Part shown: one piece after another, positions 3,974-46,160 of the stretch | How positions within the stretch are numbered: position 1 is the first letter of the stretch | Layout: every line of letters begins with the position of its first letter | Assembly: GCF_900112415.1 (NCBI RefSeq) | Contig: NZ_FOLV01000006.1 | Span: forward strand, 1-64,000 | Length of the DNA stretch: 64,000 nucleotides | Direction of reading: 5' to 3' | DNA from: Bacillus sp. 491mf | GTDB taxonomy: Bacteria > Bacillota > Bacilli > Bacillales > Bacillaceae_G | Notes under the pieces: generated by a model | Told to the model about the DNA's origin: nothing | The model's database searches: none | What the model saw: the letters and a program-made list of their open reading frames with translations, nothing else | Position numbers and translations under genes: made by a program

Positions 3974-4000
3974 AATAAGCTCCTTTATCGCATTTTTTAT

Positions 4001-4263
4001 CCCGCATTAACGGGCAGTAATACTCCCACCTCAAAATTCGGCGAAAGCATTGTCCAGCTCTAGCGGCTAGAATCTCCGGCCGTTTCGCCCCCTCGGACGA
4101 GGCAAAAAGCGCCTCTCTGTCAGGGGCTCCAACGTCCTGCGATTCTGAACGAGCCGCTTCCGCTTTTCTTAAGAAGTTAGGTGGGAGATAAACTGCCCGT
4201 AAAAGCCCGATTGGTTCAACTAATAATCAGTGGGGAAGCCCCCCTCACTGATTAAAGTTTCAC
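4001..4263 (-). repeat. bcr1-type mobile repeat (copy 1) carrying a nested repeat
   Basis: The element reads CCCGCATTAACGGGCAG at its left and GTTTCAC at its right and is flanked on both sides by TTTAT (3996-4000 and 4264-4268), a 5-bp target duplication. It folds into two stem-loops (ACGGGCAG...CTGCCCGT and the CACTGATTA-type stem). About 130 bp inside the first stem loop, absent from the other copies here, is an insertion. This matches what I recall of B. cereus group bcr1. Other copies: 19032-19132 and 45992-46077. Confidence 0.75.
4038..4168. repeat. Second repeat nested in bcr1 copy 1
   Basis: This GC-rich stretch begins near TGTCCAGCTCTAGCGGCT and ends GAGCCGCTTCCGCTTTTCTT. Its AGCGGCT and AGCCGCT ends can pair. 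It resembles a repeat seen in many Bacillaceae genomes (GTCCAGCTC...GCGCTTTTC type). Its base composition is clearly unlike the surrounding AT-rich DNA, and the bcr1 sequence is interrupted by it. Confidence 0.55.
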
Positions 4264-4281
4264 TTTATAGTGTTTACACTT

Positions 4282-4386: not shown

Positions 4387-5154
4387 ATGCAGCGTAAAGC
4401 TTTCTTCAAAGTACCACTTCTACTTATTACAGTGGCGGCTACTTTGTTGGTAAGTAGTGTTCATGAGAAAGAGGTAAAGGCTTTTTCAAATCAAGTTATC
4501 CAAAAAGGAGCTTCTGGAGAAGATGTAATCGAACTACAATCAAGACTCAAATACATTGGATTTTACAATGGGAAAGTAGATGGTGTCTTTGGGTGGGGTA
4601 CATATTGGGCGCTTCGGAATTTTCAACAAAAATTCGGATTAAAGGTTGATGGACTTGCTGGTACAGCTACAAAACAGAAGCTCGTTAAAGCTACCAAATA
4701 CGAAAAGCAACAAAGTAACACAGCGAACAACCAAGGTAATAAACCATCACAAAATAATAAACCAGCACAAAATAAAGGCACAAATGTTCCGAATGGATAC
4801 TCGCAAAACGACATTAAAATCTTGGCAAATGCTGTATATGGTGAATCGCGAGGTGAACCATATATCGGACAAGTTGCTGTTGCAGCTGTTATTTTAAATC
4901 GTGTTAGCAGTTCAAATTTTCCGAACACAGTTGCAGGAGTAATTTATGAGCCGCGTGCCTTTACTGCTGTTGCAGACGGCCAGATCAATTTAACACCAAA
5001 TGAAACAGCAAAAAAAGCCGTGCTTGATGCAATTAACGGATGGGATCCATCTGGAGGAGCATTGTATTACTTTAATCCTGATACAGCAACCAGTAAATGG
5101 ATTTGGGGACGCCCGCAAATTAAGAAAATTGGAAGACACATTTTTTGTCACTAG
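4387..5154 (+). CDS. sleB: Spore cortex-lytic enzyme SleB
   Basis: 255 residues, the usual SleB length. Order: signal peptide (residues 1-32), peptidoglycan-binding domain (about 38-95, GASGEDVIELQSRL and DGVFGWGTYWALRNFQ), a low-complexity Asn/Gln/Lys linker with a repeated NNKPAQN-type unit, then the SleB/CwlJ hydrolase domain (about 135-255) with the catalytic glutamate in VYGESRGEP. It is a lytic transglycosylase that degrades muramic-lactam cortex during germination. It is exported into the dormant spore and depends on YpeB, encoded 18 bases downstream. Expression is expected in the forespore (sigma G), though I could not assign a promoter. Confidence 0.95.
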   Translation: MQRKAFFKVPLLLITVAATLLVSSVHEKEVKAFSNQVIQKGASGEDVIELQSRLKYIGFYNGKVDGVFGWGTYWALRNFQQKFGLKVDGLAGTATKQKLVKATKYEKQQSNTANNQGNKPSQNNKPAQNKGTNVPNGYSQNDIKILANAVYGESRGEPYIGQVAVAAVILNRVSSSNFPNTVAGVIYEPRAFTAVADGQINLTPNETAKKAVLDAINGWDPSGGALYYFNPDTATSKWIWGRPQIKKIGRHIFCH

Positions 5155-5172
5155 TTAGGAGGTGGATGAGAT

Positions 5173-6513
5173 ATGTTTAGAGGTTTATTAATTGTTTTAT
5201 TAACAATCGGAGTTGTAGGAACAGGATATTGGGGATATAAAGAGCACCAAGAAAAAAATGCGGTATTAATACATGCTGAAAATAACTACCAGCGAGCTTT
5301 CCATGATTTAGCCTATCAAGTCGATATATTACATGACAAAATCGGAACAACATTAGCAATGAATTCAAGAACATCATTATCACCTGCATTAGCGGATGTG
5401 TGGCGCATCACATCTCAAGCACATTCTGATATTGGGCAATTACCACTAACGTTACTCCCGTTCAATAAAACAGAAGAATTTCTATCAAATATCGGAGAAT
5501 TTAGTTACCGTACAGCTATACGTGATTTAGAAAAAGAACCATTGAATGACGGGGAATATAAAACACTCCAGCAACTATATAGTAATGCTGCGAATATTCA
5601 AGATGAACTGCGTAAAGTGCAGCATCTAGCCTTAAAAAACAATTTACGTTGGATGGATGTTGAACTGGCACTTGCTTCTAATAAAAATCCAGCCGATAAC
5701 ACGATTATTGATGGATTTAAAACAGTAGAAAAAAACAGTAATGCTTATTCACAAAGCCCTTTTGGACCCACGTTTACAAGTTTGCAGACAGAAAAAAAGG
5801 GTGAAATGCACATATCTGGTCCAAATATTTCAAAAGAACAAGCATTAAATATTGCTAAATCTTTCCTTAGCTTAAAGGGGGATGAAACGATTTCTGCAGA
5901 AAAAAGCGGAAAAGGAGCAAAAGAAAAATTTTATAGCATTACAGTAAAAGACCATAAGACAAATAGTGAAACGAATATGGACATTACTGAAAAAGGCGGT
6001 TTTCCAATTTGGGTTATGAACAACCGTGAAGTAAAAGAACAAAAGATTAGCTTAAATGAAGCAGGAGAAAAGGGACTTTCCTTTTTAAAACAAAATAAAT
6101 TCAAAAATATGGAGTTATATGAAAGCTCCCAATACGATTCTATTGGCGTTTTCACATTCGTCACGAATCAAGGCAACGTGCGTATATATCCAGAATCCAT
6201 TCAAATGAAAATTGCGCTTGATGACGGTTCGATTGTTGGCTTCTCTGCCAGAGACTATTTAGCATCTCGTAAAGATATAAAAATTCCAAAACCAACATTA
6301 TCGGTTTCGGATGCACGGAAGAAAATTAATCCTAATTTAAAAGTTATGGAAGAGCGTGAAGCGATCGTTGTAAATGACTTGCATAAAGAGGTACTATGTT
6401 ATGAATTTTTAGGAACACTTGGGAAAGACACTTATCAAATCTTTATTAATGCCAATAGTGGTATCGAAGAAAAAGTGAAAAAACTACAAAGTGTAGAACA
6501 AATTTTTGATTAA
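5173..6513 (+). CDS. ypeB: Germination protein YpeB
   Basis: 446 residues with an N-terminal membrane anchor (residues 3-20), a long helical region and C-terminal PepSY-type domains (from about residue 215, ISKEQALNIAKSFL, and again near residue 370, LSVSDARKKINP). YpeB is needed for SleB to be retained and stable in dormant spores and is processed during germination. It follows sleB with a GGAGGTGG ribosome site, the standard operon order. Confidence 0.95.
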   Translation: MFRGLLIVLLTIGVVGTGYWGYKEHQEKNAVLIHAENNYQRAFHDLAYQVDILHDKIGTTLAMNSRTSLSPALADVWRITSQAHSDIGQLPLTLLPFNKTEEFLSNIGEFSYRTAIRDLEKEPLNDGEYKTLQQLYSNAANIQDELRKVQHLALKNNLRWMDVELALASNKNPADNTIIDGFKTVEKNSNAYSQSPFGPTFTSLQTEKKGEMHISGPNISKEQALNIAKSFLSLKGDETISAEKSGKGAKEKFYSITVKDHKTNSETNMDITEKGGFPIWVMNNREVKEQKISLNEAGEKGLSFLKQNKFKNMELYESSQYDSIGVFTFVTNQGNVRIYPESIQMKIALDDGSIVGFSARDYLASRKDIKIPKPTLSVSDARKKINPNLKVMEEREAIVVNDLHKEVLCYEFLGTLGKDTYQIFINANSGIEEKVKKLQSVEQIFD

Positions 6514-6531
6514 TGAATAGGAGTGACACCT

Positions 6532-7137
6532 TTGAGGAAAACCTTATACTTTTGTATCTGTTTACTTCTATTAGCAAGTTGCAGTACAAAAAAGAATGAT
6601 CATACAGCGAATCCTAAACCAACTTCAAATACAGATCAAAATACAACAAGAAACGTAACATATAAAGAAAATACACGTAAAACAGATGAAACAAAAGCTG
6701 ATCATCTCGCAAATATTGCTTCAAACATACCTGGTGTAAGAGATGCAACGGCTGTTGTTCTAGGTAAGTATTCCATTGTTGGTATCGATGTAGGTGCTAA
6801 GTTAGATCGTACAAGAGTAGAAACAATTAAATACTCCGTTGCCGAGAGCTTAAAGCACGATCCACAAGGTTCTAACGCAGTTGTAGTTGCTGATTTAGAT
6901 ACGTACGAACGTTTAAAACAAATTGGAAAACGGATTAAAGAAGGAAAAGCTGGCGAAGGCATTCTCGATGAACTTGCGGCTATCGTAGGACGAGCGATGC
7001 CGCAAGTGCCAAATGATTTATTAGAAAACAAACAGACCAATCCAGTTAAAGAAAACAATCAACAATTACCAAAAGACGAACAAAATGAATTAAAACAAGA
7101 ACAAGTTGACCAATCTAATCAACATTTAAAACGATAA
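6532..7137 (+). CDS. ylaJ: YhcN/YlaJ-family sporulation lipoprotein (third gene of sleB operon)
   Basis: About 201 residues with a lipoprotein signal peptide (LLLLASC, lipid on Cys). The YhcN/YlaJ domain is recognisable in the middle (ADHLANIASNIPGVRDATAVV... ending in a glycine-containing GEGILDELAAIVGRAMPQ). A Gln/Asn/Lys-rich tail follows. In the B. cereus group this gene is the last of the sleB-ypeB-ylaJ operon and is reported to affect germination. TTG at 6532 is the likely start: the AGGAG at 6519-6523 is spaced 8 bases from it but would overlap the GTG at 6523. Confidence 0.85.
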   Translation: MRKTLYFCICLLLLASCSTKKNDHTANPKPTSNTDQNTTRNVTYKENTRKTDETKADHLANIASNIPGVRDATAVVLGKYSIVGIDVGAKLDRTRVETIKYSVAESLKHDPQGSNAVVVADLDTYERLKQIGKRIKEGKAGEGILDELAAIVGRAMPQVPNDLLENKQTNPVKENNQQLPKDEQNELKQEQVDQSNQHLKR

Positions 7138-18840: not shown

Positions 18841-19031
18841 TCGTTTCCTCCTTGTCAGTATAACTAGTGAATAATATGGCGTTCATACTCCTCTTTAACG
18901 TACAGCTCTATGACCGTAAAACGATTCATCTGATTCTTAGACGTAATCAAATGACTATATTTCTCTTCAAGAGCAAAGAAAACAATTCCTTCTTTTTCAA
19001 CCTAAGTAGAAGAAAAAGCAAACACGTATCT

Positions 19032-19132
19032 TGGTTGAACCAATCGGGCTTTTACGGGCAGTTATCCCCCACCTATCTTCTTCGTTTCTCTCTTAACCTT
19101 GAGGTGGGGGTCTTACTGCCCGTTAATGCGGG
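19032..19132 (+). repeat. bcr1-type repeat (copy 2), 5' half missing
   Basis: Starts TGGTTGAACCAATCGGGC and ends CGTTAATGCGGG followed by ATAAA. It keeps the stem ACGGGCAG...CTGCCCGT and the inner CCCCCACCT...AGGTGGGGG stem, but the first hairpin of the full element is absent. This copy shows the uninterrupted loop (about 27 bp) that is filled by the nested repeat in copy 1. Confidence 0.75.
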
Positions 19133-19242
19133 ATAAATGTTTTCTCTTGACCTGAAATGCGTTTCATACATTATAACTAAGATGTTGCACATGAGAACGA
19201 TATCATTTATCGCATATATAGAAACGAAAGTAGGAGACAGTG

Positions 19243-20197: not shown

Positions 20198-20344
20198 CTA
20201 TATAAATGCAAATAAAAAAACGACATAAAAACCCTCTTTCTGTGTAGGCGGGCAAGAGCATCTGGCCATGCATAGAAGCGGTCAAGGCCTTTTTCTACCA
20301 CATGCAAGGTTTAAAACAAAAGGAGAAAGCAGGGAGTGCAGGTC
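20198..20344. repeat. About 150-bp direct repeat, copy A (left of kinase gene)
   Basis: Begins near TATATAAATGCAAATAAAAA and ACGACATAAAAA, then GGGCAAGAGCATCTGGCC, GGTCAAGGCC and GTTTAAAACAAAAGGAG. The same blocks recur in the same order at 22398-22550. An internal GGCC...GGCC hairpin followed by TTTTT is present, so an RNA role is possible. No protein is encoded. Confidence 0.6.
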
Positions 20345-20494: not shown

Positions 20495-20679
20495 TGTGTT
20501 TTTATCCACTTTTCTTCTCTATCGTATTGAAAAATAAAAAAATTCCTAAATCACACTATTTTTCTATGTACCTTGATGAATTTAATTCGTATAATGGAAA
20601 AGTTGAGTAAATTTACAAATTAAACACAATTGAAAAATCAATATATACATGTGAATTACAGATATAGGAGTTGGCGGAT

Positions 20680-22416
20680 ATGTATCGGCTTACAGAACTT
20701 ATTGATATACAAGAAATACAAACAATGGCAGAACAATTTTATTTTTTAACACATATTTCACATCAGCTTCTTGATTGCGATCAAGAGACAATATTTCATT
20801 ACGGCACACAATCCAATGACACAAATTTACATACAAAAATTCATATCCCGATTATAATCAATGAACACGCTATTGGTGATTTTATCATTTTTTCTCCACA
20901 AGATCATATTGATTCTTGTACAATATATTTCAAATCTCTTGTAGCACTTATGACTAATATAGGAATGAATAAATTGCAACAACTTCAAAAGAAGCGATCA
21001 ATACCTACTGAAAATTTATATACTATTTTACAAAACATGCCTGTGATGGTTGATGCATTTGCTGAAGAAGGTACGTTTTCGATATGGAATCGAGAATGTG
21101 AACTCGTAACAGGGTATAGTGCAGCTGAAATTGTTAACAATCCTCACGCATTAGAACTGCTTTATCCTGATGAAGGATATCGAAATCAAGCGCTAAATGA
21201 ATTTTTCGTTCGTGGTAAAAACTTTCGTGATTGGGAAATGACGCTTACTTGTAAAAATGGTGATAAGAAAACGATTATGTGGTCAAATCTATCAGAAGAA
21301 TTCCCTGTTCCTGGGTATAGCCACTGGGCAATTGGTGTCGATATTACACATCGAAAAAAGATTGAAGAAGAGCTCATCCAAAAATCCTCAGAGTTAGAAC
21401 TAATCTTTAAAGCACTTCCAGATTTATGCTTTTTAATAGATCTAGATGGAATAATTTTTGATTATAAGGCTGGTTGTTCAGAGAAATTTTATATGCCTAC
21501 TGAACAATTTATGGGCAAAAGTTTTCAAGATGTTTTACCTTCTGATGCTGCCGAGCAATTACATGAAGCAATTATAAAGGTACAAGAAAATAATTCTATA
21601 GAAGTTGTAGACTACTCCTTACCGATGCATGATAGTGTGTATTATTTTGAAGCACGATGTTTACCGCTTTTAACAGATACAATTATGATTCTTGTTCGTG
21701 ATATTACAGAACGAAAAAAGACAACTGAACTATTGAATAAATCAGATACATTAGCCGCAGTTAGTCAACTTGCTGCAGGAGTTGCACACGAAGTACGAAA
21801 TCCGTTAACTGTCATTAAAGGATTTATACAATTACTACAAATTCAAATGAGTAATGATACAGATTATTTTCCACTTATGATTTCTGAAATTGAACGCATT
21901 GAATCTATTATTCATGAGTTTTTATCGATTGCAAAACCGGAAATTATTTCTTTTGAAAAAAAGAACCTTTGTTTTATATTAGAAAATGTTGTCTCATTAA
22001 TTAACACAAAGGCAATTATGACAAATATTCATATCACATTCCAAACGGATCCTCAATTCTTATATATAGATTGTTGCGAAAAACAGTTAAAACAAGTATT
22101 TATAAACGTTCTACAAAATTCTATTGAAGCAATGCCAAACGGAGGAAAGATCATAATTACTGCCAAGAAGACAAGCGATACTGAGGTAATGATTTGTATT
22201 TCCGATGAGGGAGTAGGTATTCCGGAAGAAAGAATTATAAAACTTGGAGAACCTTTTTATAGCACAAAAGAAAAAGGGACAGGAATTGGCTTAATGATTA
22301 GTTATAAAATTATTGAACGTCATCAAGGCAGAATTTTTATAACGAGTAAGGTTGGAGTAGGGACTTCAGTGAAAATCTACTTACCAATTTCTCAAACTTA
22401 TATAAATGCAAATTAA
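20680..22416 (+). CDS. Soluble PAS-PAS sporulation-type sensor histidine kinase
   Basis: About 578 residues, no membrane segment. An N-terminal sensor region (1-100) is followed by two PAS domains (about 105-225 and 240-350), then HisKA with the phospho-acceptor His in AAGVAHEVRNPLTVIKGF (about 370), and an HATPase domain with N-box (QNSIEAMPNGG), G1 (ISDEGVGIP) and G2 (GTGIGLMISYKI). This layout fits the orphan Kin-type kinases that feed the Spo0A phosphorelay. ATG at 20680 has AGGAG 9 bases upstream. The last residues YINAN and the stop are encoded by a direct repeat also found upstream, so the C-terminus may have been replaced. Confidence 0.88.
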   Translation: MYRLTELIDIQEIQTMAEQFYFLTHISHQLLDCDQETIFHYGTQSNDTNLHTKIHIPIIINEHAIGDFIIFSPQDHIDSCTIYFKSLVALMTNIGMNKLQQLQKKRSIPTENLYTILQNMPVMVDAFAEEGTFSIWNRECELVTGYSAAEIVNNPHALELLYPDEGYRNQALNEFFVRGKNFRDWEMTLTCKNGDKKTIMWSNLSEEFPVPGYSHWAIGVDITHRKKIEEELIQKSSELELIFKALPDLCFLIDLDGIIFDYKAGCSEKFYMPTEQFMGKSFQDVLPSDAAEQLHEAIIKVQENNSIEVVDYSLPMHDSVYYFEARCLPLLTDTIMILVRDITERKKTTELLNKSDTLAAVSQLAAGVAHEVRNPLTVIKGFIQLLQIQMSNDTDYFPLMISEIERIESIIHEFLSIAKPEIISFEKKNLCFILENVVSLINTKAIMTNIHITFQTDPQFLYIDCCEKQLKQVFINVLQNSIEAMPNGGKIIITAKKTSDTEVMICISDEGVGIPEERIIKLGEPFYSTKEKGTGIGLMISYKIIERHQGRIFITSKVGVGTSVKIYLPISQTYINAN

Positions 22417-22550
22417 AAAAACGACATAAAAATCACTTTTTTAAGGGAGGACGAGAGCGTATGGCCGTGTATTGAAGTGGTCAGCGCCTTTTCCTGCCAC
22501 CTGCCACATTCGGGATTTAAAACAAAGGGAGCCGGCAAGAGTAACGGTCA
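22398..22550. repeat. Direct repeat, copy B (overlaps kinase 3' end)
   Basis: Shares TATAAATGCAAAT, AAAAACGACATAAAAA, GAGAGCGTATGGCC, GTGGTCAGCGCC and GATTTAAAACAAAGGGAG with copy A at 20198-20344. It starts inside the last five codons of the kinase gene. The two copies lie in the same orientation about 2.2 kb apart. Confidence 0.6.
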
Positions 22551-31113: not shown

Positions 31114-31545
31114 ATGTTACATATAGAAAAAGCAAAACCTAATGATTTACAATGGATTCATTCTCAATATGAAAAGGCTAATTTTGTACCATCACATTTA
31201 GAAAATGAAGAGATTGCAATAGCATATGTTTATGGTCAAAAAGCTGGCTTAGGAAGATTAGTAAAAATTGATGAAAACAACTTTGAAATGGGTGGGATAT
31301 ATACGTTAGAAGACTATAGAGGAAAGAAAATTGCTGATAGTATCGTTGCATTTCTTATTAAAGAATCTCGTAAACTTCAAATTCAAAATGTATATTGCAT
31401 TCCATTTGAGCACTTAAAGCCTTTTTATAGTAAACATGGATTTCAAGAAGTAGTAGATTTAGCTTCGGTTCCTAAACAGATTACAAATAAATATAATTGG
31501 TGCTTAGAACAATATGATATAAAAACACTGTTAATGAAAATATGA
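31114..31545 (+). CDS. GNAT-family N-acetyltransferase
   Basis: About 143 residues with the GNAT core: strand MGGIYTLEDYRGKKIADSIVAFLI (acetyl-CoA loop RGKKIA near residue 75) and a C-terminal HLKPFYSKHGFQEV block. Substrate unknown. The ATG at 31114 has GGAGGTC upstream. It ends just before a strong bidirectional terminator and so is separate from the bacteriocin genes. Confidence 0.8.
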   Translation: MLHIEKAKPNDLQWIHSQYEKANFVPSHLENEEIAIAYVYGQKAGLGRLVKIDENNFEMGGIYTLEDYRGKKIADSIVAFLIKESRKLQIQNVYCIPFEHLKPFYSKHGFQEVVDLASVPKQITNKYNWCLEQYDIKTLLMKI

Positions 31546-31584
31546 GGAGCAGACTAAAAAGGCCACTTTTTAGTCTGCTCCTTT
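31546..31584. terminator. Strong bidirectional terminator
   Basis: A perfect 16-bp inverted repeat, GGAGCAGACTAAAAAG with loop gcca, followed by TTT. The following 275 bases up to the precursor gene hold no other gene; CAAGTC/GACTTG (31811-31834) could form a small leader hairpin. Confidence 0.85.
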
Positions 31585-31860: not shown

Positions 31861-32154
31861 ATGAATAATTTTCAACAAGAACTTCAAACGTTAAATTTAA
31901 ATGACTATAATGCTGGAAATGTTGTGTATTGGGATAGTCAAATTCCTTCTCCATACTATATTGATAGCGACTATACTCGTCGTTGCGGTGGCTGTGGCCG
32001 TTGTGGCGGTGGTGGCCGTTGTGGAGGATTCGGTCGTTGTGGATTCCGTTGTGTTGGATGCTTTGGATGCTTTGGCTGTGGCGGTTGCGGTGGATGCGGT
32101 GGATGCGGCGGTTGTGGCGGTGGATTCTGCGTGGACGGATTCTGCTTTATTTAA
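31861..32154 (+). CDS. Heterocycloanthracin-type TOMM precursor peptide (Cys-Xaa-Xaa repeats)
   Basis: 97 residues. The leader (about 1-38, FQQELQTLNLNDYNAGNVVYW) is hydrophilic and is the expected docking site for the maturation enzymes. The core (about 40-97) has 15 cysteines, mostly spaced three apart in CGG, CGR, CFG and CVG units separated by Gly, Arg and Phe, with no Ser or Thr. Azole formation would therefore give thiazoles only. It corresponds to the strain-variable bacteriocin family of B. anthracis/B. cereus. Very good ribosome site (TTGGAGGTAATAAA). Maturation genes start 186 bases downstream in the same direction. Confidence 0.9.
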   Translation: MNNFQQELQTLNLNDYNAGNVVYWDSQIPSPYYIDSDYTRRCGGCGRCGGGGRCGGFGRCGFRCVGCFGCFGCGGCGGCGGCGGCGGGFCVDGFCFI

Positions 32155-32184
32155 TTCCTATTTTTTAATTGAAACTTTACTTAA

Positions 32185-32227
32185 AGAAAAGCGTTTCTAC
32201 ATGATCTTCATTGTGGTGACGCTTTTC
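32185..32227 (+). terminator. Weak terminator between precursor and maturation genes
   Basis: GAAAAGCGT and ACGCTTTTC arms with a 25-base loop, ending in TTTTC. It may let only part of the transcripts continue, giving more precursor than enzyme. Confidence 0.5.
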
Positions 32228-32261
32228 TATAAGTATGATAAACCACACTTCTTTTTTTCGT

Positions 32262-32301
32262 TTGACATAAGAAAAAATAGGATACATAAAATTGTTATGA
32301 T
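32262..32301 (+). promoter_or_regulatory. Candidate promoter of the maturation genes
   Basis: TTGACA (32262-32267), 17 bases, then CATAAA (32285-32290). A second AT-rich hexamer TATGAT at 32296-32301 lacks a -35 at the right distance. The maturation genes could thus be read separately from the precursor. Confidence 0.4.
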
Positions 32302-32340
32302 GAAGGTTTTTGATGCAATAAACAGTGAAGGAGGAGTACA

Positions 32341-34266
32341 ATGACAAAATTAAACTCTTCTACGCGTTTGAAAATGAAACGAGATACCTTTTTTCTCTCT
32401 AATCCAAAAGGAGAAGTGTATTTTAGAAATAATACAAGTTCATTCCGTATGGAAGGGAAGTCAATTAATCAATGGATTGAAAAACTGGTGCCAATGTTCA
32501 ACGGAGAATACACATTAGGAAGCTTAACAGATGGTTTATCTGAGCCATATCGAAAGCGAGTATTTGAAATAGCAGAAACACTATATAAAAATGAATTTGC
32601 AACAGACATAAGTCAAGATCATTTACACCAATTGCCAGAATGTATTCTCGAAAAATACGCATCTCAAATTGAATTTTTAGATAACCTCGGCGGTTCGGGT
32701 GCGTATCGCTTTCAATCTTACCGCCAAACGAAAGTATTAGCCATTGGTTCGGATTCATTTTATGTTTCCCTTATTTCTGCATTACTTGAATCGGGGTTAC
32801 CGAAATTTTATATGATGAATACTGATTCAGTATCAACCAATAAAAGACGAATAATTGAACTAATAGAGCATGCACAAGAAACAGATCCTGAAGTAGCGAC
32901 TGAAGAAATTTTTTTGCAAAATGAAAAAAGAAATGCTTTGAAAGATGCGTTGCAGCCATTTCAGGCGATTTTGTATGTATCACAAGAAGAAGACATAGAG
33001 GAATTAAAAATTCTTCATGCTATTTGTAAAGAAGAAAAAAAGATTTTTATCCCTGCCATTTTTAAGCAAGGAGTCGGGTTAGCCGGGCCACTCGTACACC
33101 CGGAAAATGATGCTTGCTGGGAATCAGCTTGGCGCCGTATACACAAGTCTGCATTTCCTAAAACTTCAGGAGAACACACTGTTTCTTCTACAACTGAAGC
33201 GATGTTAGCAAATGTAATTGTATTTGAATTGTTCAAAAAAGTTACAGATGTAACAAATGATACGAAAACGAATCAAATTTTTTTACTAAATTCCGAAACA
33301 TTAGAAGGAAACTGGCACTCCTTTTTTCCTCATCCATTAGTAAATGAGAGAATGGAAATTGAATGGGTCCAAGATATTAATACGAGAATGAAACAAAACT
33401 CAAATATAAATGAATCGAATGAATATACTCTTAACTTGAATTCCCTAGTATCTAAAGAAGCAGGGATTTTTCACGTTTGGGAAGCAGGTGACTTAAAACA
33501 ACTGCCATTGGCTCAATGTCGTATTCAAACAGTTGATCCGTTGTCAGAAGGACCCGCTGAATTATTACCAGATATGATTAGTACAGGTTTAACACATATG
33601 GAAGCTAGGTACGAATCTGGATTAGCTGGAGTTGAGACCTATATATCACGAATCGTTCGTTCCAAGTTTTCTGAAGATGAAGATTTTCTAGGAATCGGAG
33701 CTGGGGAAACGATTGCAGAATGTGTAATTAGAGGATTAGAAAAATGCTTGGATGAAGAATTTCGTAAGAGACAACTACAACAAAAAATTGCTGTTTTTCC
33801 CCTGCAATTAGATGGAGTAGAAGATGAACGCTGCCGATATTATTTGCAAGCACTTACCACAATGCAAGGAACACCTACAATTGCGTTAGGAGAGGCTATT
33901 TTTAACTTTCCGGTTATTTGGATTGGTACGAATAATCGCTGGTACGGAAGTGTAGGCGTTAATAGAACAATAGCATTACGGAAAGCATTACAACAGGCAC
34001 TAATAGAAGTACAAAATTGTGACGATTGCCTCGCATCACAAACAATAGAGAATTCATCCGTTTTATTACAAGATAAAACGCCATTACAATTCGCCATTTC
34101 TTCTTGTGAAAACTTGACAGATGAAGAGATATTACAATCTGCTGAACAGACACTAAAACAAAATGGAAAACGGCTTTACGTATTTGAAATATCGCTAGAA
34201 GAGGTCTGGAAAGAGGAATTGGCAGGAATTTATGGAGTATTATTGGGAGAGGAGGAATCCTATTGA
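32341..34266 (+). CDS. Thiazole bacteriocin maturation protein (cyclodehydratase partner, E1/ThiF-like)
   Basis: 641 residues, soluble. It matches the family named putative thiazole-containing bacteriocin maturation protein. The first 100 residues are a leader-binding-like region (VYFRNNTSSFRMEGKSIN, then WIEKLVPMFNGEYTLGSLTDGL); a Rossmann-like part follows (TKVLAIGSDSFYVSLISALLESGL, about 124-147), then GPLVHPENDACWESAWRR (about 244), and a C-terminal region (about 420-640) distantly like YcaO. It should present the precursor to the YcaO enzyme. GAAGGAGGAG ribosome site; the stop overlaps the next start by four bases (TTGA). Confidence 0.82.
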   Translation: MTKLNSSTRLKMKRDTFFLSNPKGEVYFRNNTSSFRMEGKSINQWIEKLVPMFNGEYTLGSLTDGLSEPYRKRVFEIAETLYKNEFATDISQDHLHQLPECILEKYASQIEFLDNLGGSGAYRFQSYRQTKVLAIGSDSFYVSLISALLESGLPKFYMMNTDSVSTNKRRIIELIEHAQETDPEVATEEIFLQNEKRNALKDALQPFQAILYVSQEEDIEELKILHAICKEEKKIFIPAIFKQGVGLAGPLVHPENDACWESAWRRIHKSAFPKTSGEHTVSSTTEAMLANVIVFELFKKVTDVTNDTKTNQIFLLNSETLEGNWHSFFPHPLVNERMEIEWVQDINTRMKQNSNINESNEYTLNLNSLVSKEAGIFHVWEAGDLKQLPLAQCRIQTVDPLSEGPAELLPDMISTGLTHMEARYESGLAGVETYISRIVRSKFSEDEDFLGIGAGETIAECVIRGLEKCLDEEFRKRQLQQKIAVFPLQLDGVEDERCRYYLQALTTMQGTPTIALGEAIFNFPVIWIGTNNRWYGSVGVNRTIALRKALQQALIEVQNCDDCLASQTIENSSVLLQDKTPLQFAISSCENLTDEEILQSAEQTLKQNGKRLYVFEISLEEVWKEELAGIYGVLLGEEESY

Positions 34267-36206
34267 GCTCTTCCATTTTAATAATTGGAGAAGGACTATT
34301 GGCAAAACGTGTATATAAAGAATTAGCTGAACAGTATGAAATCAATCAACAAACAGATTTTGATCGGAAAATTCCAGAAACAACCGATTTAGTTCTTGTG
34401 TTACATGATAATTGGAATCCTTCATTTCATACAGAGGCAGAAAGTGTACTTCAATCAACGAATATTCCTTGGCTGCGAGCCTTCGTTTCATTTGGAAAAG
34501 GAATAATCGGTCCGCTCGTTCGCCCTGGCACATCGGGCTGTTCTCAATGTGCAGATATACGCCGTACTTTTGCAGGGAAAGATTCGAAAGAGATGTGGCG
34601 AATATTACAAAACCTAACAACAAATAAGGAAAGCCCCCGAGACATATGGGCATCAAATAATGGAATATTACAGATGACACATCTTCTGTTAAATGAGGTG
34701 CAGTGCATTTTACAGGATGATTATGCACGATTAGAAGGTCACGTATGTTTCGTGAATTTACAAACTTTGAAAAGCTCCTATCATTTTTTTCTTCCTCATG
34801 CCTTATGCCTAAATTGTAGCCAATTGCCTAATGATTCATCACATTCAGCTAATATTACATTGCAATCAAGCCCGAAGATTAATATAAATAATTATCGTTG
34901 TCGTTCAATCTCTGAACTAAGTAAAGTATTGGCCAATGATTATCTAGATTATGAGACTGGTTTTTTAAATGATAAAATGTATAACCTTACACCTCCATTT
35001 GCCGAGGTAAGTGTAAATCTTCCGCTTCTTTTTGGAGACGAAGGAACAGCTGGTCGTACCCATTCATATGCAACTAGTGAATTAACTGCCATTTTAGAAG
35101 GATTAGAACGATATTGCGGGCTAGAACCGCGTGGGAAACGTACTGTCATCAAGGACACATTTCGTAATATAGCTCATCAAGCACTTAATCCTCTTGAAGT
35201 GGGTGTACATGCAAACGAACAATATATACAACCTAATTTTCCGTTTAAACCGTTTCATCCAGATCGTCCAATGAATTGGGTATGGGGTTATTCTTTTTTG
35301 CAAGAACGTCCCATTTTAGTTCCAGAACTACTTGCTTATTATAGTTTAGGTGGTAAAGATGGTTTTGTTTATGAGACTTCTAATGGTTGCGCATTAGGTG
35401 GCAGTTTAGAAGAAGCCGTTTTTTATGGCATTTTAGAAGTCATTGAGCGCGATTCATTTTTGCTAACTTGGTATGCTGAGCTTCCTCTTCCGCGTCTTGA
35501 TCTTTCTTCTGTCGATGATCAAGAGTTGCAGTTGATGGCAGAACGTGTGCGTGCAGTAGGGGGATATGATATACATTTGTTTAACTCGACAATGGAGCAA
35601 GGAATTCCAAGCATTTGGGCACTGGCAAAAAACAGAAAGAGGGAGGGATTAAATATTATCTGTGCAGCTGGGGCACATTTAGATCCAGTGCGAGCGGCGA
35701 AAAGTGCAATATATGAATTAGCTGGCATGATGTTAACGCTTGATAAAGAATTTGAGGAGAATCGCAAGAAATATGTACAAATGTTCCATAATCCTTCCCT
35801 TGTGAAGCAAATGCCTGACCATCCGATGGTATGTGGTTTACCAGAATCAGAAGAACGGTTTCAGTTTTTACTAGATAAAAATCGCCCGGTACAAACATTT
35901 ACTGAGGCATTCAAGCAGAAAACAAGACATGAGGATTTAACAGATGATTTAAAAGAAATACTTCAGATGTTACACCAGTTGAACTTTGATGTGATTGTAG
36001 TAGATCAGACTGCACCAGAAATAAAGCGAAATGGATTACATTGTGTGAAAGTAATCATTCCAGGAATGTTGCCAATGACATTTGGGCACCATCTTACGCG
36101 CTTAACTGGTTTAGATAGGGTATTACACGTGCCAATGAAACTTGGATATGCGCAGCAATCGCTAACGCATGAACAACTCAATCCACATCCACATCCGTTC
36201 GCGTAA
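34263..36206 (+). CDS. YcaO-domain azoline synthase with N-terminal ThiF-like region
   Basis: 647 residues, TTG start. Residues 1-215 are ocin-ThiF-like: IIGEGLLAKRVYKEL, then GTSGCSQC (about 91) and HALCLNCSQL (about 178), two CxxC pairs likely to hold zinc. From about 260 comes the YcaO domain with ATP/Mg-binding glutamates in ELTAILEGLERYCG and EEAVFYGILEVIERD, and GHHLTRLTGLDR near the end. The chain finishes NPHPHPFA, matching the PxPxP tail of YcaO cyclodehydratases. It activates the amide oxygen with ATP to convert cysteines to thiazolines. Translationally coupled to the preceding gene. Confidence 0.9.
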   Translation: MSSSILIIGEGLLAKRVYKELAEQYEINQQTDFDRKIPETTDLVLVLHDNWNPSFHTEAESVLQSTNIPWLRAFVSFGKGIIGPLVRPGTSGCSQCADIRRTFAGKDSKEMWRILQNLTTNKESPRDIWASNNGILQMTHLLLNEVQCILQDDYARLEGHVCFVNLQTLKSSYHFFLPHALCLNCSQLPNDSSHSANITLQSSPKININNYRCRSISELSKVLANDYLDYETGFLNDKMYNLTPPFAEVSVNLPLLFGDEGTAGRTHSYATSELTAILEGLERYCGLEPRGKRTVIKDTFRNIAHQALNPLEVGVHANEQYIQPNFPFKPFHPDRPMNWVWGYSFLQERPILVPELLAYYSLGGKDGFVYETSNGCALGGSLEEAVFYGILEVIERDSFLLTWYAELPLPRLDLSSVDDQELQLMAERVRAVGGYDIHLFNSTMEQGIPSIWALAKNRKREGLNIICAAGAHLDPVRAAKSAIYELAGMMLTLDKEFEENRKKYVQMFHNPSLVKQMPDHPMVCGLPESEERFQFLLDKNRPVQTFTEAFKQKTRHEDLTDDLKEILQMLHQLNFDVIVVDQTAPEIKRNGLHCVKVIIPGMLPMTFGHHLTRLTGLDRVLHVPMKLGYAQQSLTHEQLNPHPHPFA

Positions 36207-36228
36207 GTGATGATTAGGAGGGAGAAGG

Positions 36229-37800
36229 GTGAGTTTAGAGACATTTTTGAACAATTTGCATTTTAATACTGATGAAGCAACCTCTTCAACTTGGGAGGTA
36301 GATTGGGAAGACGGGCCACTTCCATATAAACTTTATCAGAACCTACCGGGAATTCCGTTATCTTCAGAAGTAACATTAACACTTGAAAATCTCGAAATTT
36401 CAACAGAACCAAGCCTTCGTGAAATTGGTCATTTTCTCTGGTACGTATTTGGGATTACTCAATTTTATCAGTCAACCGGACCAACACCAGAAGTAAATGT
36501 TATGCAGTCGTATCGGAGATTTGTTCCGTCGGGCGGAGCTTTATATCCAAATGAATTATATATATATTTAAAGATGGAAAATGTCCCTGTTGGTATTTAT
36601 CACTATGATGTAGCGCACCACCGCTTAGTGTTATTAAGAGAAGGGAACTTTGATTCATATGTAGACCGGACTCTTGGTAATAGTTGTGACACATCCGCTT
36701 GTTTCGGTGTTGTTTTTGTATCGACAATGTTTTGGAAAAATTTCTTTAAGTACCATAACTTTTCTTATCGTTTGCAAGGATTGGATGCAGGCGTGTTAAT
36801 CGGACAATTGTTTGAAGTAGCAAAACAATTTCAGTTCAACTCAAGCGTGCATTTTCAATTTCTAGACCGGGCCATCAATCATTTACTCGGCTTATCGGAA
36901 CAAGAGGAGAGTGTATATGCAGTTATCCCTCTATCGATAAATTCTGAACACCAAAAGTTCAATCATGAAAATGATGATACGAATATAGAAGTCTCCGCCA
37001 CTCAATTATGTGAAGAATTACCAACTATTCATCATAATCACTATGTCCGATCACGAAAGATTGCAGAGTATCCGATGTTGATTCAAATGAATGAAGCATC
37101 TATGCTTGAATCAACACAATCATTTCAAACAATCAAGAGTGAAATAAATAGAATGCATGGTGGGCAAGCGTTAGTTCTTCCTCGTATAAAGCGAATGTCG
37201 TATGACTTAACAGCAGCGTGCCAAAATCGATTTTCACCGGAAATGGATTTTACTTTTAAGAAAATGAGTCAAGAACAATTGAATACGTTATTGCATGAAG
37301 CGACTGATTCTTTTGCCTATCAAAATGATTTAGATTCAAATTATGAAGAAATCGCATCCCGTGTTTCCATATACGTATGTTTATTTGGTGTTGAAGGTAT
37401 CCCAAACGGCGCTTATCATTATGACAGTAATACTCATACATTACGACAAGTACATCTTGGAGATCATAGATTCTTACTACAAAGCGGGATGACACTTCAC
37501 AATGTGAATCTTTTTCAAGTGCCGCTATGTCTACATGTAGTGGGGGATAAAAATCATCTTAAAACTGAACTAGGATATAGAGGATACCGTATTCAACAGA
37601 TGGAAGCAGGAATCCTTGTACAAAAATTATTGTTAGTAGCTTCTAGCCTTGGTCTAGGGGGACACCCGCTTCTTGGGTTCGATGTAAATTTGTGTGACGA
37701 ACTTTATAGGTTGGATGCAGAAGAAGAAACGAGTCTTATCCAAATTCCGATTGGTTTCCATCGTCAGCGTCCTTGGTTGAGAGGGAATTTGCGTAGTTAA
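36229..37800 (+). CDS. SagB-type FMN dehydrogenase, two nitroreductase-like domains
   Basis: 523 residues, GTG start after GGAGGGAGAAG. Two SagB/ThcOx-like halves are visible: about 60-225 (SYRRFVPSGGALYPNELYIY, then PVGIYHYDVAHHRL, GLDAGVLIGQLFEVAKQF) and about 320-515 (CQNRFSPEMDFTFKKM, IPNGAYHYDSNTHTL, MEAGILVQKLLLVASSLGLGG). The first half keeps the PSGGALYP FMN loop; the second shows the R-F-S motif. It oxidises thiazolines to thiazoles with FMN. Last gene of the maturation operon; a terminator follows at 37831. Confidence 0.9.
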   Translation: MSLETFLNNLHFNTDEATSSTWEVDWEDGPLPYKLYQNLPGIPLSSEVTLTLENLEISTEPSLREIGHFLWYVFGITQFYQSTGPTPEVNVMQSYRRFVPSGGALYPNELYIYLKMENVPVGIYHYDVAHHRLVLLREGNFDSYVDRTLGNSCDTSACFGVVFVSTMFWKNFFKYHNFSYRLQGLDAGVLIGQLFEVAKQFQFNSSVHFQFLDRAINHLLGLSEQEESVYAVIPLSINSEHQKFNHENDDTNIEVSATQLCEELPTIHHNHYVRSRKIAEYPMLIQMNEASMLESTQSFQTIKSEINRMHGGQALVLPRIKRMSYDLTAACQNRFSPEMDFTFKKMSQEQLNTLLHEATDSFAYQNDLDSNYEEIASRVSIYVCLFGVEGIPNGAYHYDSNTHTLRQVHLGDHRFLLQSGMTLHNVNLFQVPLCLHVVGDKNHLKTELGYRGYRIQQMEAGILVQKLLLVASSLGLGGHPLLGFDVNLCDELYRLDAEEETSLIQIPIGFHRQRPWLRGNLRS

Positions 37801-37830: not shown

Positions 37831-37862
37831 AGCTTGGATTCGCATGAATTCAAGTTTTTTTT
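37831..37862 (+). terminator. Terminator of bacteriocin maturation operon
   Basis: CTTGGATTC and GAATTCAAG arms with eight Ts. Confidence 0.8.
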
Positions 37863-45923: not shown

Positions 45924-45991
45924 GTAGGCTTAGTTCCAGATTTGAGTAGAAATGAAGGTTTATGTTACATGTAGTATTTAAAAATAATAAA

Positions 45992-46077
45992 GTGAAACTT
46001 CCATCAGTGGGGGTTTTCTTCATCCCCCACTGATGGTTAGTTGAACCAATCGGGGTCTTACTGCCCGTTAGTGCGGG
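45992..46077 (+). repeat. bcr1-type repeat (copy 3) with internal deletion
   Basis: Starts GTGAAACTTCCATCAGTGGGGG, keeps the first long hairpin (CCATCAGTGGGGG...CCCCCACTGATGG) and ends CTGCCCGTTAGTGCGGG, but the second hairpin is lost: it jumps from AATCGGG to GTCTTACTGCCCG. Flanked by ATAAA on both sides (45987-45991 and 46078-46082). Confidence 0.78.
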
Positions 46078-46160
46078 ATAAATGTGTTTATTGTAAATAA
46101 ACTAAAGCTTTTGACCCGAAATTACATGTATCTCAGTCGAACCCCAGTTCATGCATTCAT

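What the first reader, a model, noticed from the sequence alone, without database searches (positions are those of the whole stretch)
31861..37800. Heterocycloanthracin-type precursor lies next to its own maturation operon
A Cys-Xaa-Xaa repeat precursor is followed within 190 bases, same strand, by a cyclodehydratase partner, a YcaO enzyme with a PxPxP-type C-terminus and a double SagB-type dehydrogenase. From memory, the description of this B. anthracis/B. cereus family stressed that the precursor gene is always far from the maturation operon. If so, this locus is an exception or a distinct subfamily and makes the enzyme-substrate pairing explicit.
Basis: partly seen in the sequence, partly recalled or inferred. 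Interest (0 to 1): 0.8.

Follow-up and report, generated by a model that had tools for sequence, protein, structure and literature searches.

The report
Ordinary linked heterocycloanthracin bacteriocin gene cluster
A spore-forming bacterium carries a small cysteine-rich peptide gene right next to the enzymes predicted to turn its cysteines into thiazole rings; this side-by-side order is the usual one in the relatives that could be examined, and the far-apart order described for the anthrax and cereus bacilli looks like the odd one out.

Summary
Window 31861-32154 encodes a TIGR03601 heterocycloanthracin/sonorensin precursor (92.8 bits, cut-off 35), followed 186 nt later on the same strand by F (TIGR03693, leader-binding ThiF-like), D (YcaO, TIGR03604, C-terminus PHPHPFA) and B (double SagB). 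Haft 2009 did say 'always encoded far' for B. anthracis/B. cereus, but the same paper shows B. licheniformis linked, and a 2015 survey found 14 precursors within 10 kb in a 254-member group. In a draw of 397 genomes, 110 carry F; 101 of these have a Cys-repeat precursor 120-441 nt upstream and the other 9 have it 4-10 kb upstream. Linkage is the norm in that sample, not a new subfamily. One twist: the window looks close to B. cereus sensu lato (sleB-ypeB-ylaJ operon; SleB 186/220 identical to PDB 4fet, against at most 77% in 358 sampled genomes), so it may keep the ancestral linked state beside the group known for the split. No B. cereus-group genome could be searched and the window's own genome is not held, so a second precursor cannot be excluded.

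The parts
31544..31583 (+). terminator-like hairpin closing the upstream GNAT gene; left boundary of the unit
   Evidence: 18 pairs, 7 GC. The region as a whole has no more such sites than shuffles: 5 found, mean 4.5
31861..32154 (+). precursor peptide, 97 aa, leader to Arg-Arg then a 56-residue core with 15 Cys and no Ser/Thr
   Evidence: TIGR03601, 92.8 bits, E 1.5e-26; Cys positions
32155..32340 (+). 186-nt spacer with a strong stem-loop (about 32178-32235), candidate attenuator/mRNA stabiliser between precursor and enzymes
   Evidence: MFE -42.9 kcal/mol, z -3.56, 0 of 200 shuffles as stable; 32 of 52 relatives' spacers z <= -2
32341..34266 (+). F protein, 641 aa, ocin-ThiF-like leader-peptide-binding protein with a probable N-terminal RRE
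   Evidence: TIGR03693, 766.1 bits; residues 12-69 match PbtF chain 8t19, E 1.9e-4
34263..36206 (+). D protein, 647 aa, fused truncated E1-like/YcaO cyclodehydratase ending PHPHPFA
   Evidence: TIGR03604 433 bits, TIGR03882 134 bits; LynD, TruD; C-terminus
36229..37800 (+). B protein, 523 aa, double SagB/nitroreductase-type FMN dehydrogenase, N-half with KY, C-half without
   Evidence: TIGR03605, 2 stretches, 222.7 bits; Nitroreductase; 3eo7, CyaGox, McbC
37831..37862 (+). terminator-like hairpin plus T-run; right boundary of the unit
   Evidence: stem 37831-37856, 11 pairs; T-run read
4387..7137 (+). sleB-ypeB-ylaJ-type operon, context marker of B. cereus sensu lato (not part of the cluster)
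   Evidence: TIGR02869, TIGR02889, PF09580 Spore_YhcN_YlaJ; PMC12331253 passages

Best explanation
This is a complete, ordinary heterocycloanthracin-type (HCA) linear azol(in)e peptide locus in the usual linked order precursor-F-D-B. The precursor's roughly 40-residue leader is bound by the RiPP recognition element (RRE) at the N-terminus of F. F docks on the truncated fused cyclodehydratase D, which uses ATP to cyclise core cysteines to thiazolines. B oxidises them to thiazoles, up to 15 rings and about -300 Da. A stem-loop after the precursor probably keeps precursor mRNA more abundant than enzyme mRNA. The product is probably a secreted antibacterial peptide. Shown here: genes, families, order, conservation, RRE sequence match, predicted hairpin. 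Inferred from characterised homologues: leader binding, cyclodehydration and oxidation. Inferred only: attenuation, export, leader removal and activity; no exporter, protease or immunity gene was recognised inside the unit.
For: Curated models for all four proteins pass their cut-offs. The gene order is conserved: of 110 genomes with F in a 397-genome draw, 101 have a Cys-repeat ORF 120-441 nt upstream on the same strand and 9 have it 4.0-10.1 kb upstream. D and B follow F in 17 of 17 genomes and in 19 of the 19 F-bearing stretches as checked (B cut by the stretch end in L119). F residues 12-69 match PbtF. D is offset by about 110-145 residues to LynD, fitting the ~100-residue N-terminal truncation stated for HCA enzymes in PMC4603692 (passages). 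The HCA cyclodehydratase was reconstituted and needs F (passages), and HcaF binds its leader in a cell-free assay (passages of PMC12325987). Leader and RRE distances covary beyond the next part of F: partial r 0.27, 0 of 2000 permutations, n = 53; the converse partial r is 0.12.
Against: No azole has been shown for this peptide. The core ends CVDGFCFI, not the WNWWII or [FY]EY ends that Haft reports for the B. cereus group. In 4 of the 9 loci (L004, L005, L008, L009, all Paenibacillus) F has no intact D and B behind it. The partial Mantel test controls relatedness only through another part of F. Promoter and terminator scans as a whole do not exceed shuffles (21 vs 25.8 and 5 vs 4.5), and 20 of 52 relatives' spacers do not reach z -2. 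A second, distant precursor in this genome cannot be excluded.
Confidence: 0.93

Rival explanations
1. The linked locus is an exception inside the B. cereus group: the window's organism belongs to B. cereus sensu lato or is its nearest sister and keeps the ancestral linked arrangement, whereas B. anthracis/B. cereus split precursor and operon. This is compatible with the best explanation and concerns evolution, not mechanism.
For: A sleB-ypeB-ylaJ-type operon, described as general in B. cereus s.l. but not other Bacillus (PMC12331253 passages). SleB identical to PDB chain 4fet in 186 of 220 aligned residues, to 6tci in 66 of 74 and to 4f55 in 109 of 123, against at most 77% in 358 genomes (109 of them had a match at E <= 1e-75). 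Highest TIGR03601 score seen (92.8 bits; at most 78.8). In B. anthracis the precursor is BA_2677 and sleB is BA2748, 71 locus numbers apart, while the operon BA_1266-1268 is 1.27 Mb away; in the window sleB lies 27 kb from the precursor. GC3 of F, D, B (0.26-0.29) is like that of sleB/ypeB (0.26-0.27), so no sign of recent transfer.
Against: No B. cereus-group genome could be searched. The margin over other genomes is moderate: 85% over the length of 4fet against 77%. Nearness to sleB is weak: 71 of some 5,500 loci (total recalled) is not rare by chance, and of 17 genomes that I picked out with F and SleB on one contig only G337 has them within 14 kb. The window's species is not identified.
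Confidence: 0.37
2. The locus is a recent horizontal arrival in this lineage.
For: The nearest F found is only 61-62% identical, and flanking genes of the window are, with one exception (a 67% MFS match in L116), not near the cluster in the relatives checked at over 45% identity.
Against: Operon GC3 matches chromosomal genes; no mobile-element family was recognised among the neighbouring proteins scanned; low identity is expected if the nearest relatives are not in the collection.
Confidence: 0.15
3. The adjacent enzymes serve mainly another, distant precursor and the adjacent gene is a relic or one of several substrates.
For: Haft reports strains with two precursors and one cassette. Here genome G584 has one F match with one adjacent and five remote TIGR03601 matches on the same contig.
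Against: The window's precursor is intact, with a strong ribosome-binding site, full leader and 15 Cys. Several substrates would not stop this one being a substrate.
Confidence: 0.12

Closest known systems
Heterocycloanthracin (HCA) of B. anthracis/B. cereus/B. thuringiensis (TIGR03601 + F, D, B; Haft 2009 PMC2674419; HCA of B. thuringiensis Al Hakam per PMC7136475 and PMC12325987 passages)
   Same: Leader type, Arg-Arg boundary, Cys-Gly-Gly repeats, ThiF-like F, truncated fused D, B
   Different: Precursor adjacent to the operon instead of about 1.27 Mb away (B. anthracis); C-terminus CVDGFCFI instead of WNWWII or [FY]EY
B. licheniformis / sonorensin-type HCA (Haft 2009 text and Fig. 1 legend; PMC4544038 passages)
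   Same: Precursor beside its maturation genes (B. licheniformis)
   Different: B. licheniformis core is Cys-Trp-Ser-like according to Haft; the window's is Cys-Gly-Gly-like
Gottfriedia endophytica locus L007/L010
   Same: Linked order, RR boundary, FGRC/CGGCGG core; ends WPWWFI, close to Haft's WNWWII type
   Different: F only 52-54% identical
Thiopeptide azole cassette (TclI/TclJ/TclN, micrococcin; PMC10634744 passages)
   Same: Same three-protein logic of RRE scaffold, fused E1-YcaO, dehydrogenase
   Different: Window core has no Ser/Thr, and no dehydratase or pyridine-forming gene was recognised among the neighbours scanned

Membership tests
Heterocycloanthracin/sonorensin (TIGR03601) | Precursor scores over the curated cut-off of TIGR03601 | tested here: met
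   92.8 bits vs 35
Heterocycloanthracin/sonorensin (TIGR03601) | Arg-Arg boundary, then Cys at about every third residue | tested here: met
   TRR|CGG...; 9 of 14 Cys spacings are 3
Heterocycloanthracin/sonorensin (TIGR03601) | F protein (TIGR03693) with RRE | tested here: met
   766.1 bits; PbtF match at residues 12-69, E 1.9e-4; fold prediction did not finish
Heterocycloanthracin/sonorensin (TIGR03601) | Fused C-D cyclodehydratase lacking about 100 N-terminal residues | tested here: met
   TIGR03882 + TIGR03604 in one protein; offset of about 110-145 residues to LynD
Heterocycloanthracin/sonorensin (TIGR03601) | B protein (SagB-type dehydrogenase) | tested here: met
   TIGR03605 222.7 bits, two stretches
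Heterocycloanthracin/sonorensin (TIGR03601) | Thiazol(in)e formation on the core | not testable with these tools
   needs mass spectrometry
Heterocycloanthracin/sonorensin (TIGR03601) | Antibacterial activity | not testable with these tools
   reported for sonorensin (PMC4544038, passages)
B. cereus-group type of HCA | Precursor far from the maturation operon | tested here: not met
   186 nt; a further distant precursor could not be looked for
B. cereus-group type of HCA | C-terminus WNWWII or [FY]EY | tested here: not met
   ends FCVDGFCFI
Thiopeptide | Ser/Thr in the core and dehydratase/cycloaddition genes | tested here: not met
   no Ser/Thr in the core; neighbours scanned are MFS, GNAT, two small ORFs without match, speD, beta-lactamase-like
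Streptolysin-S-type cytolysin | Unfused SagC and SagD, SagE protease, ABC exporter (gene set recalled) | tested here: not met
   fused D plus F; no such gene among the ten proteins scanned

The most novel reading that the evidence does not exclude
The window's organism is a member or immediate sister of B. cereus sensu lato that retains the complete ancestral cluster near sleB-ypeB-ylaJ, the broad chromosomal neighbourhood in which B. anthracis keeps only the precursor. The split would then have arisen inside the group by loss or relocation of the enzyme operon while the precursor stayed in place.
Probability: 0.28. Interest if true: 0.45.

Novelty: new member of a known kind. Interest (0 to 1): 0.27.

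Why it matters
It corrects an impression that can be drawn from the 2009 description. In the genomes examined the precursor is normally beside its enzymes (101 of 110, the rest within about 10 kb), so the split described for the B. cereus group is the anomaly to explain. A linked locus in a B. cereus-like genome gives a compact precursor/enzyme set for biochemistry and a possible outgroup for working out how and why the split arose.

Tried and rejected
Rejected: thiopeptide (no Ser/Thr in the core, no partner enzymes recognised); SLS-type cytolysin (fused, F-dependent type of enzyme); distinct subfamily (passes TIGR03601 with the highest score seen, same gene order). Led nowhere: viral-contig scan with D (none confirmed); plasmid searches with DNA, F, D and precursor (only distant or partial matches; best organism hint a Bacillus arachidis plasmid histidine-kinase gene at 80.6%); Rfam at gathering thresholds (no match); tRNA scan (none); class-level genome draw to find a close relative (F at most 62% in 348 genomes); promoter scan (no excess). 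A literature search for six B. anthracis gene numbers in the range BA2677-BA2718 gave only Haft 2009 and two other papers in the listing, not read. The JACS 2015 paper on the HCA F protein is not held; what is said of it comes from passages of other papers.

Rows dropped or imperfect: one search handled 63 precursor loci; some extractions were wrong (L015, L155, L163 are not precursors; L031, L032 carry upstream extension) and identical peptides were merged; searches used the 52 loci in which precursor end and F start were both located, and a few leaders there (L029, L032, L087, L092) start a few residues off. G297 (25.5 bits, no F) is outside the 110. The 12 extra adjacent precursors, that of G107 and the five remote ones were recognised by an ORF scan for Cys repeats, not by TIGR03601.

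Full report
What is there. The window holds one co-directional unit, 31861-37800 on the + strand. The precursor (31861-32154, 97 aa) matches TIGR03601, the heterocycloanthracin/sonorensin family, at 92.8 bits against a curated cut-off of 35, E 1.5e-26. All its 15 cysteines lie in a 56-residue core after an Arg-Arg pair; 9 of the 14 spacings are exactly 3; the core has no Ser or Thr. After 186 nt comes F (TIGR03693, 766 bits), overlapping by 4 nt with D (TIGR03604 433 bits plus TIGR03882 134 bits, ending PHPHPFA), followed after 22 nt by B (TIGR03605 in two stretches, 222.7 bits). Each gene has a Shine-Dalgarno-like sequence. Terminator-like hairpins lie before the unit (31544-31583) and after it (37831-37856 plus a T-run), although the region as a whole has no more such sites than shuffled sequence.

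How it most likely works. F probably carries a RiPP recognition element (RRE) at its N-terminus: residues 12-69 match PbtF, 8t19, at E 1.9e-4. D aligns with LynD from residue 264 to the C-terminus, offset by about 110-145 residues, in line with the truncation that PMC4603692 gives for HCA enzymes (passages). In B only the N-half has a Lys-Tyr pair (residues 174-175), aligned with a KY of the SagB-type dehydrogenase 8pz5; its catalytic role is recalled. In characterised relatives the F protein binds the leader, D makes azolines with F, and B oxidises them (passages of PMC4603692 and PMC10634744; HcaF-leader binding in a cell-free assay, PMC12325987 passages). Across 53 loci, leader distances track RRE distances beyond what the next part of F explains (partial r 0.27, 0 of 2000 permutations; converse partial r 0.12); this supports pairing but controls relatedness imperfectly. 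The spacer behind the precursor folds strongly (-42.9 kcal/mol, z -3.56), and 32 of 52 relatives' spacers have z <= -2 while 20 do not, so differential expression of precursor and enzymes through a hairpin is plausible. Export, leader removal and immunity are unexplained: the upstream MFS gene is separated by a terminator-like hairpin and gave no reported hit beside the cluster in the loci.

Is adjacency exceptional? Haft 2009 (whole text read) says the B. [quoted passage not shown] anthracis, but supports the family with the linked B. licheniformis gene. PMC4603692 (passages) found 14 HCA precursors within 10 kb of D in a group of 254. In the draw of 397 genomes (same draw), 110 have F at E <= 1e-20. 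Of these, 88 have a TIGR03601 precursor 120-441 nt upstream, median 192; 12 more have a Cys-repeat ORF 124-414 nt upstream that the model search did not list; G107 has one at 371 nt. That is 101 of 110. The remaining 9 (G188, G200, G248, G270, G291, G311, G330, G350, G387) have it 4.0-10.1 kb upstream on the same strand. In the family of Gottfriedia endophytica, 18 of 19 genomes have both and all 18 are linked. Among named species, Paenibacillus planticolens, P. ferrarius, P. aceris, Cytobacillus horneckiae and Gottfriedia endophytica are linked. The window's 186 nt is typical.

Against this reading. The sample contains no recognisable B. cereus-group genome: the best SleB among 358 genomes is 77% and the best TIGR03601 score among 397 is 72.9 bits. 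Yet the window itself looks B. cereus-like: it has sleB, ypeB and a YhcN/YlaJ lipoprotein gene in a row, an order described as general in B. cereus sensu lato and not in other Bacillus (PMC12331253 passages), and its SleB is identical in 186 of 220 residues to 4fet, 66 of 74 to 6tci and 109 of 123 to 4f55 (6tci is stated to be B. cereus SleB; that 4fet is from B. anthracis and 4f55 from B. cereus is recalled). So the family-wide claim of an exception falls, but a narrower one, linkage in a lineage at or beside the group known for the split, is neither shown nor excluded. B. anthracis sleB is BA2748 (PMC2265799 passages) and its precursor BA_2677, so in both genomes the precursor sits in the broad neighbourhood of sleB; this is suggestive only, since 71 of some 5,500 loci (total recalled) is not rare, and of 17 genomes with F and SleB on one contig only G337 has them within 14 kb. 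GC3 of the operon is like that of sleB and ypeB, so recent transfer is not indicated.

Is the adjacent gene the true substrate? The condition 'true substrate elsewhere' cannot be tested, as the genome is not held. Relatives show that adjacency and remote precursors can coexist: G584 has one F match, one adjacent and five dispersed TIGR03601 matches on one contig (three of the six peptides were read); G469 has three on other contigs than its F; G009 has one adjacent and one on another contig; G010 and G337 have two in tandem.

Verdict. A genuine, intact and ordinary member of the HCA family in the usual arrangement. The useful lesson is inverted: linkage is the rule in the genomes examined and the split of B. 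cereus/B. anthracis is probably the derived state. Searches for print on adjacency or multiple precursors were made; beyond Haft 2009 and PMC4603692 I saw no survey of linkage in their listings, but most subscription papers are not held.

Noticed in passing
G584 (L172-L177), G574 (L178-L181), G469 (L182-L184): Several HCA precursors per genome: G584 has six TIGR03601 matches spread over one contig and a single F match with one of them adjacent; G574 has six and no F found; G469 has three. A one-enzyme-set, many-substrates arrangement (only some of the peptides were read).
   Followed up: partly
G200, G248, G270, G291, G311, G330, G350, G387 (L117-L119, L205-L209); G149 (L189): A group sharing one precursor type (MNQFQNDLQHLDVGEY...) in which the precursor lies 5-10 kb upstream of F, while G149 with the same type has it 188 nt from F: separation seems to have happened independently of B. 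cereus.
   Followed up: partly
L004, L005, L008, L009 (Paenibacillus): F without an intact D and B behind it, with a D gene on the opposite strand upstream and, in L004, L005 and L008, no Cys-repeat precursor found: apparently decayed clusters, described only.
   Followed up: partly
Paenibacillus larvae plasmid NZ_CP019653.1, 8333-9616: A plasmid stretch matching the first 289 residues of F (59.9%) with a leader-like match (27 residues, E 0.07) just upstream: perhaps a linked but incomplete plasmid copy.
   Followed up: no
window 3996-4276, 19031-19143, 45979-46088: Short interspersed repeat copies (77-95% alike) with matches of 76-93% in Gottfriedia endophytica L007 and in L125; no Rfam match in the window.
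   Followed up: partly
window 20199-20325 and 22399-22531: A direct repeat of about 130 bp (76%) flanking the PAS histidine-kinase gene 20671-22416, which is 80.6% identical to a gene on a Bacillus arachidis plasmid.
   Followed up: no
L010/L007 Gottfriedia endophytica precursor: C-terminus WPWWFI resembles the WNWWII end reported for B. cereus-group precursors, although here the gene is linked to its operon.
   Followed up: no
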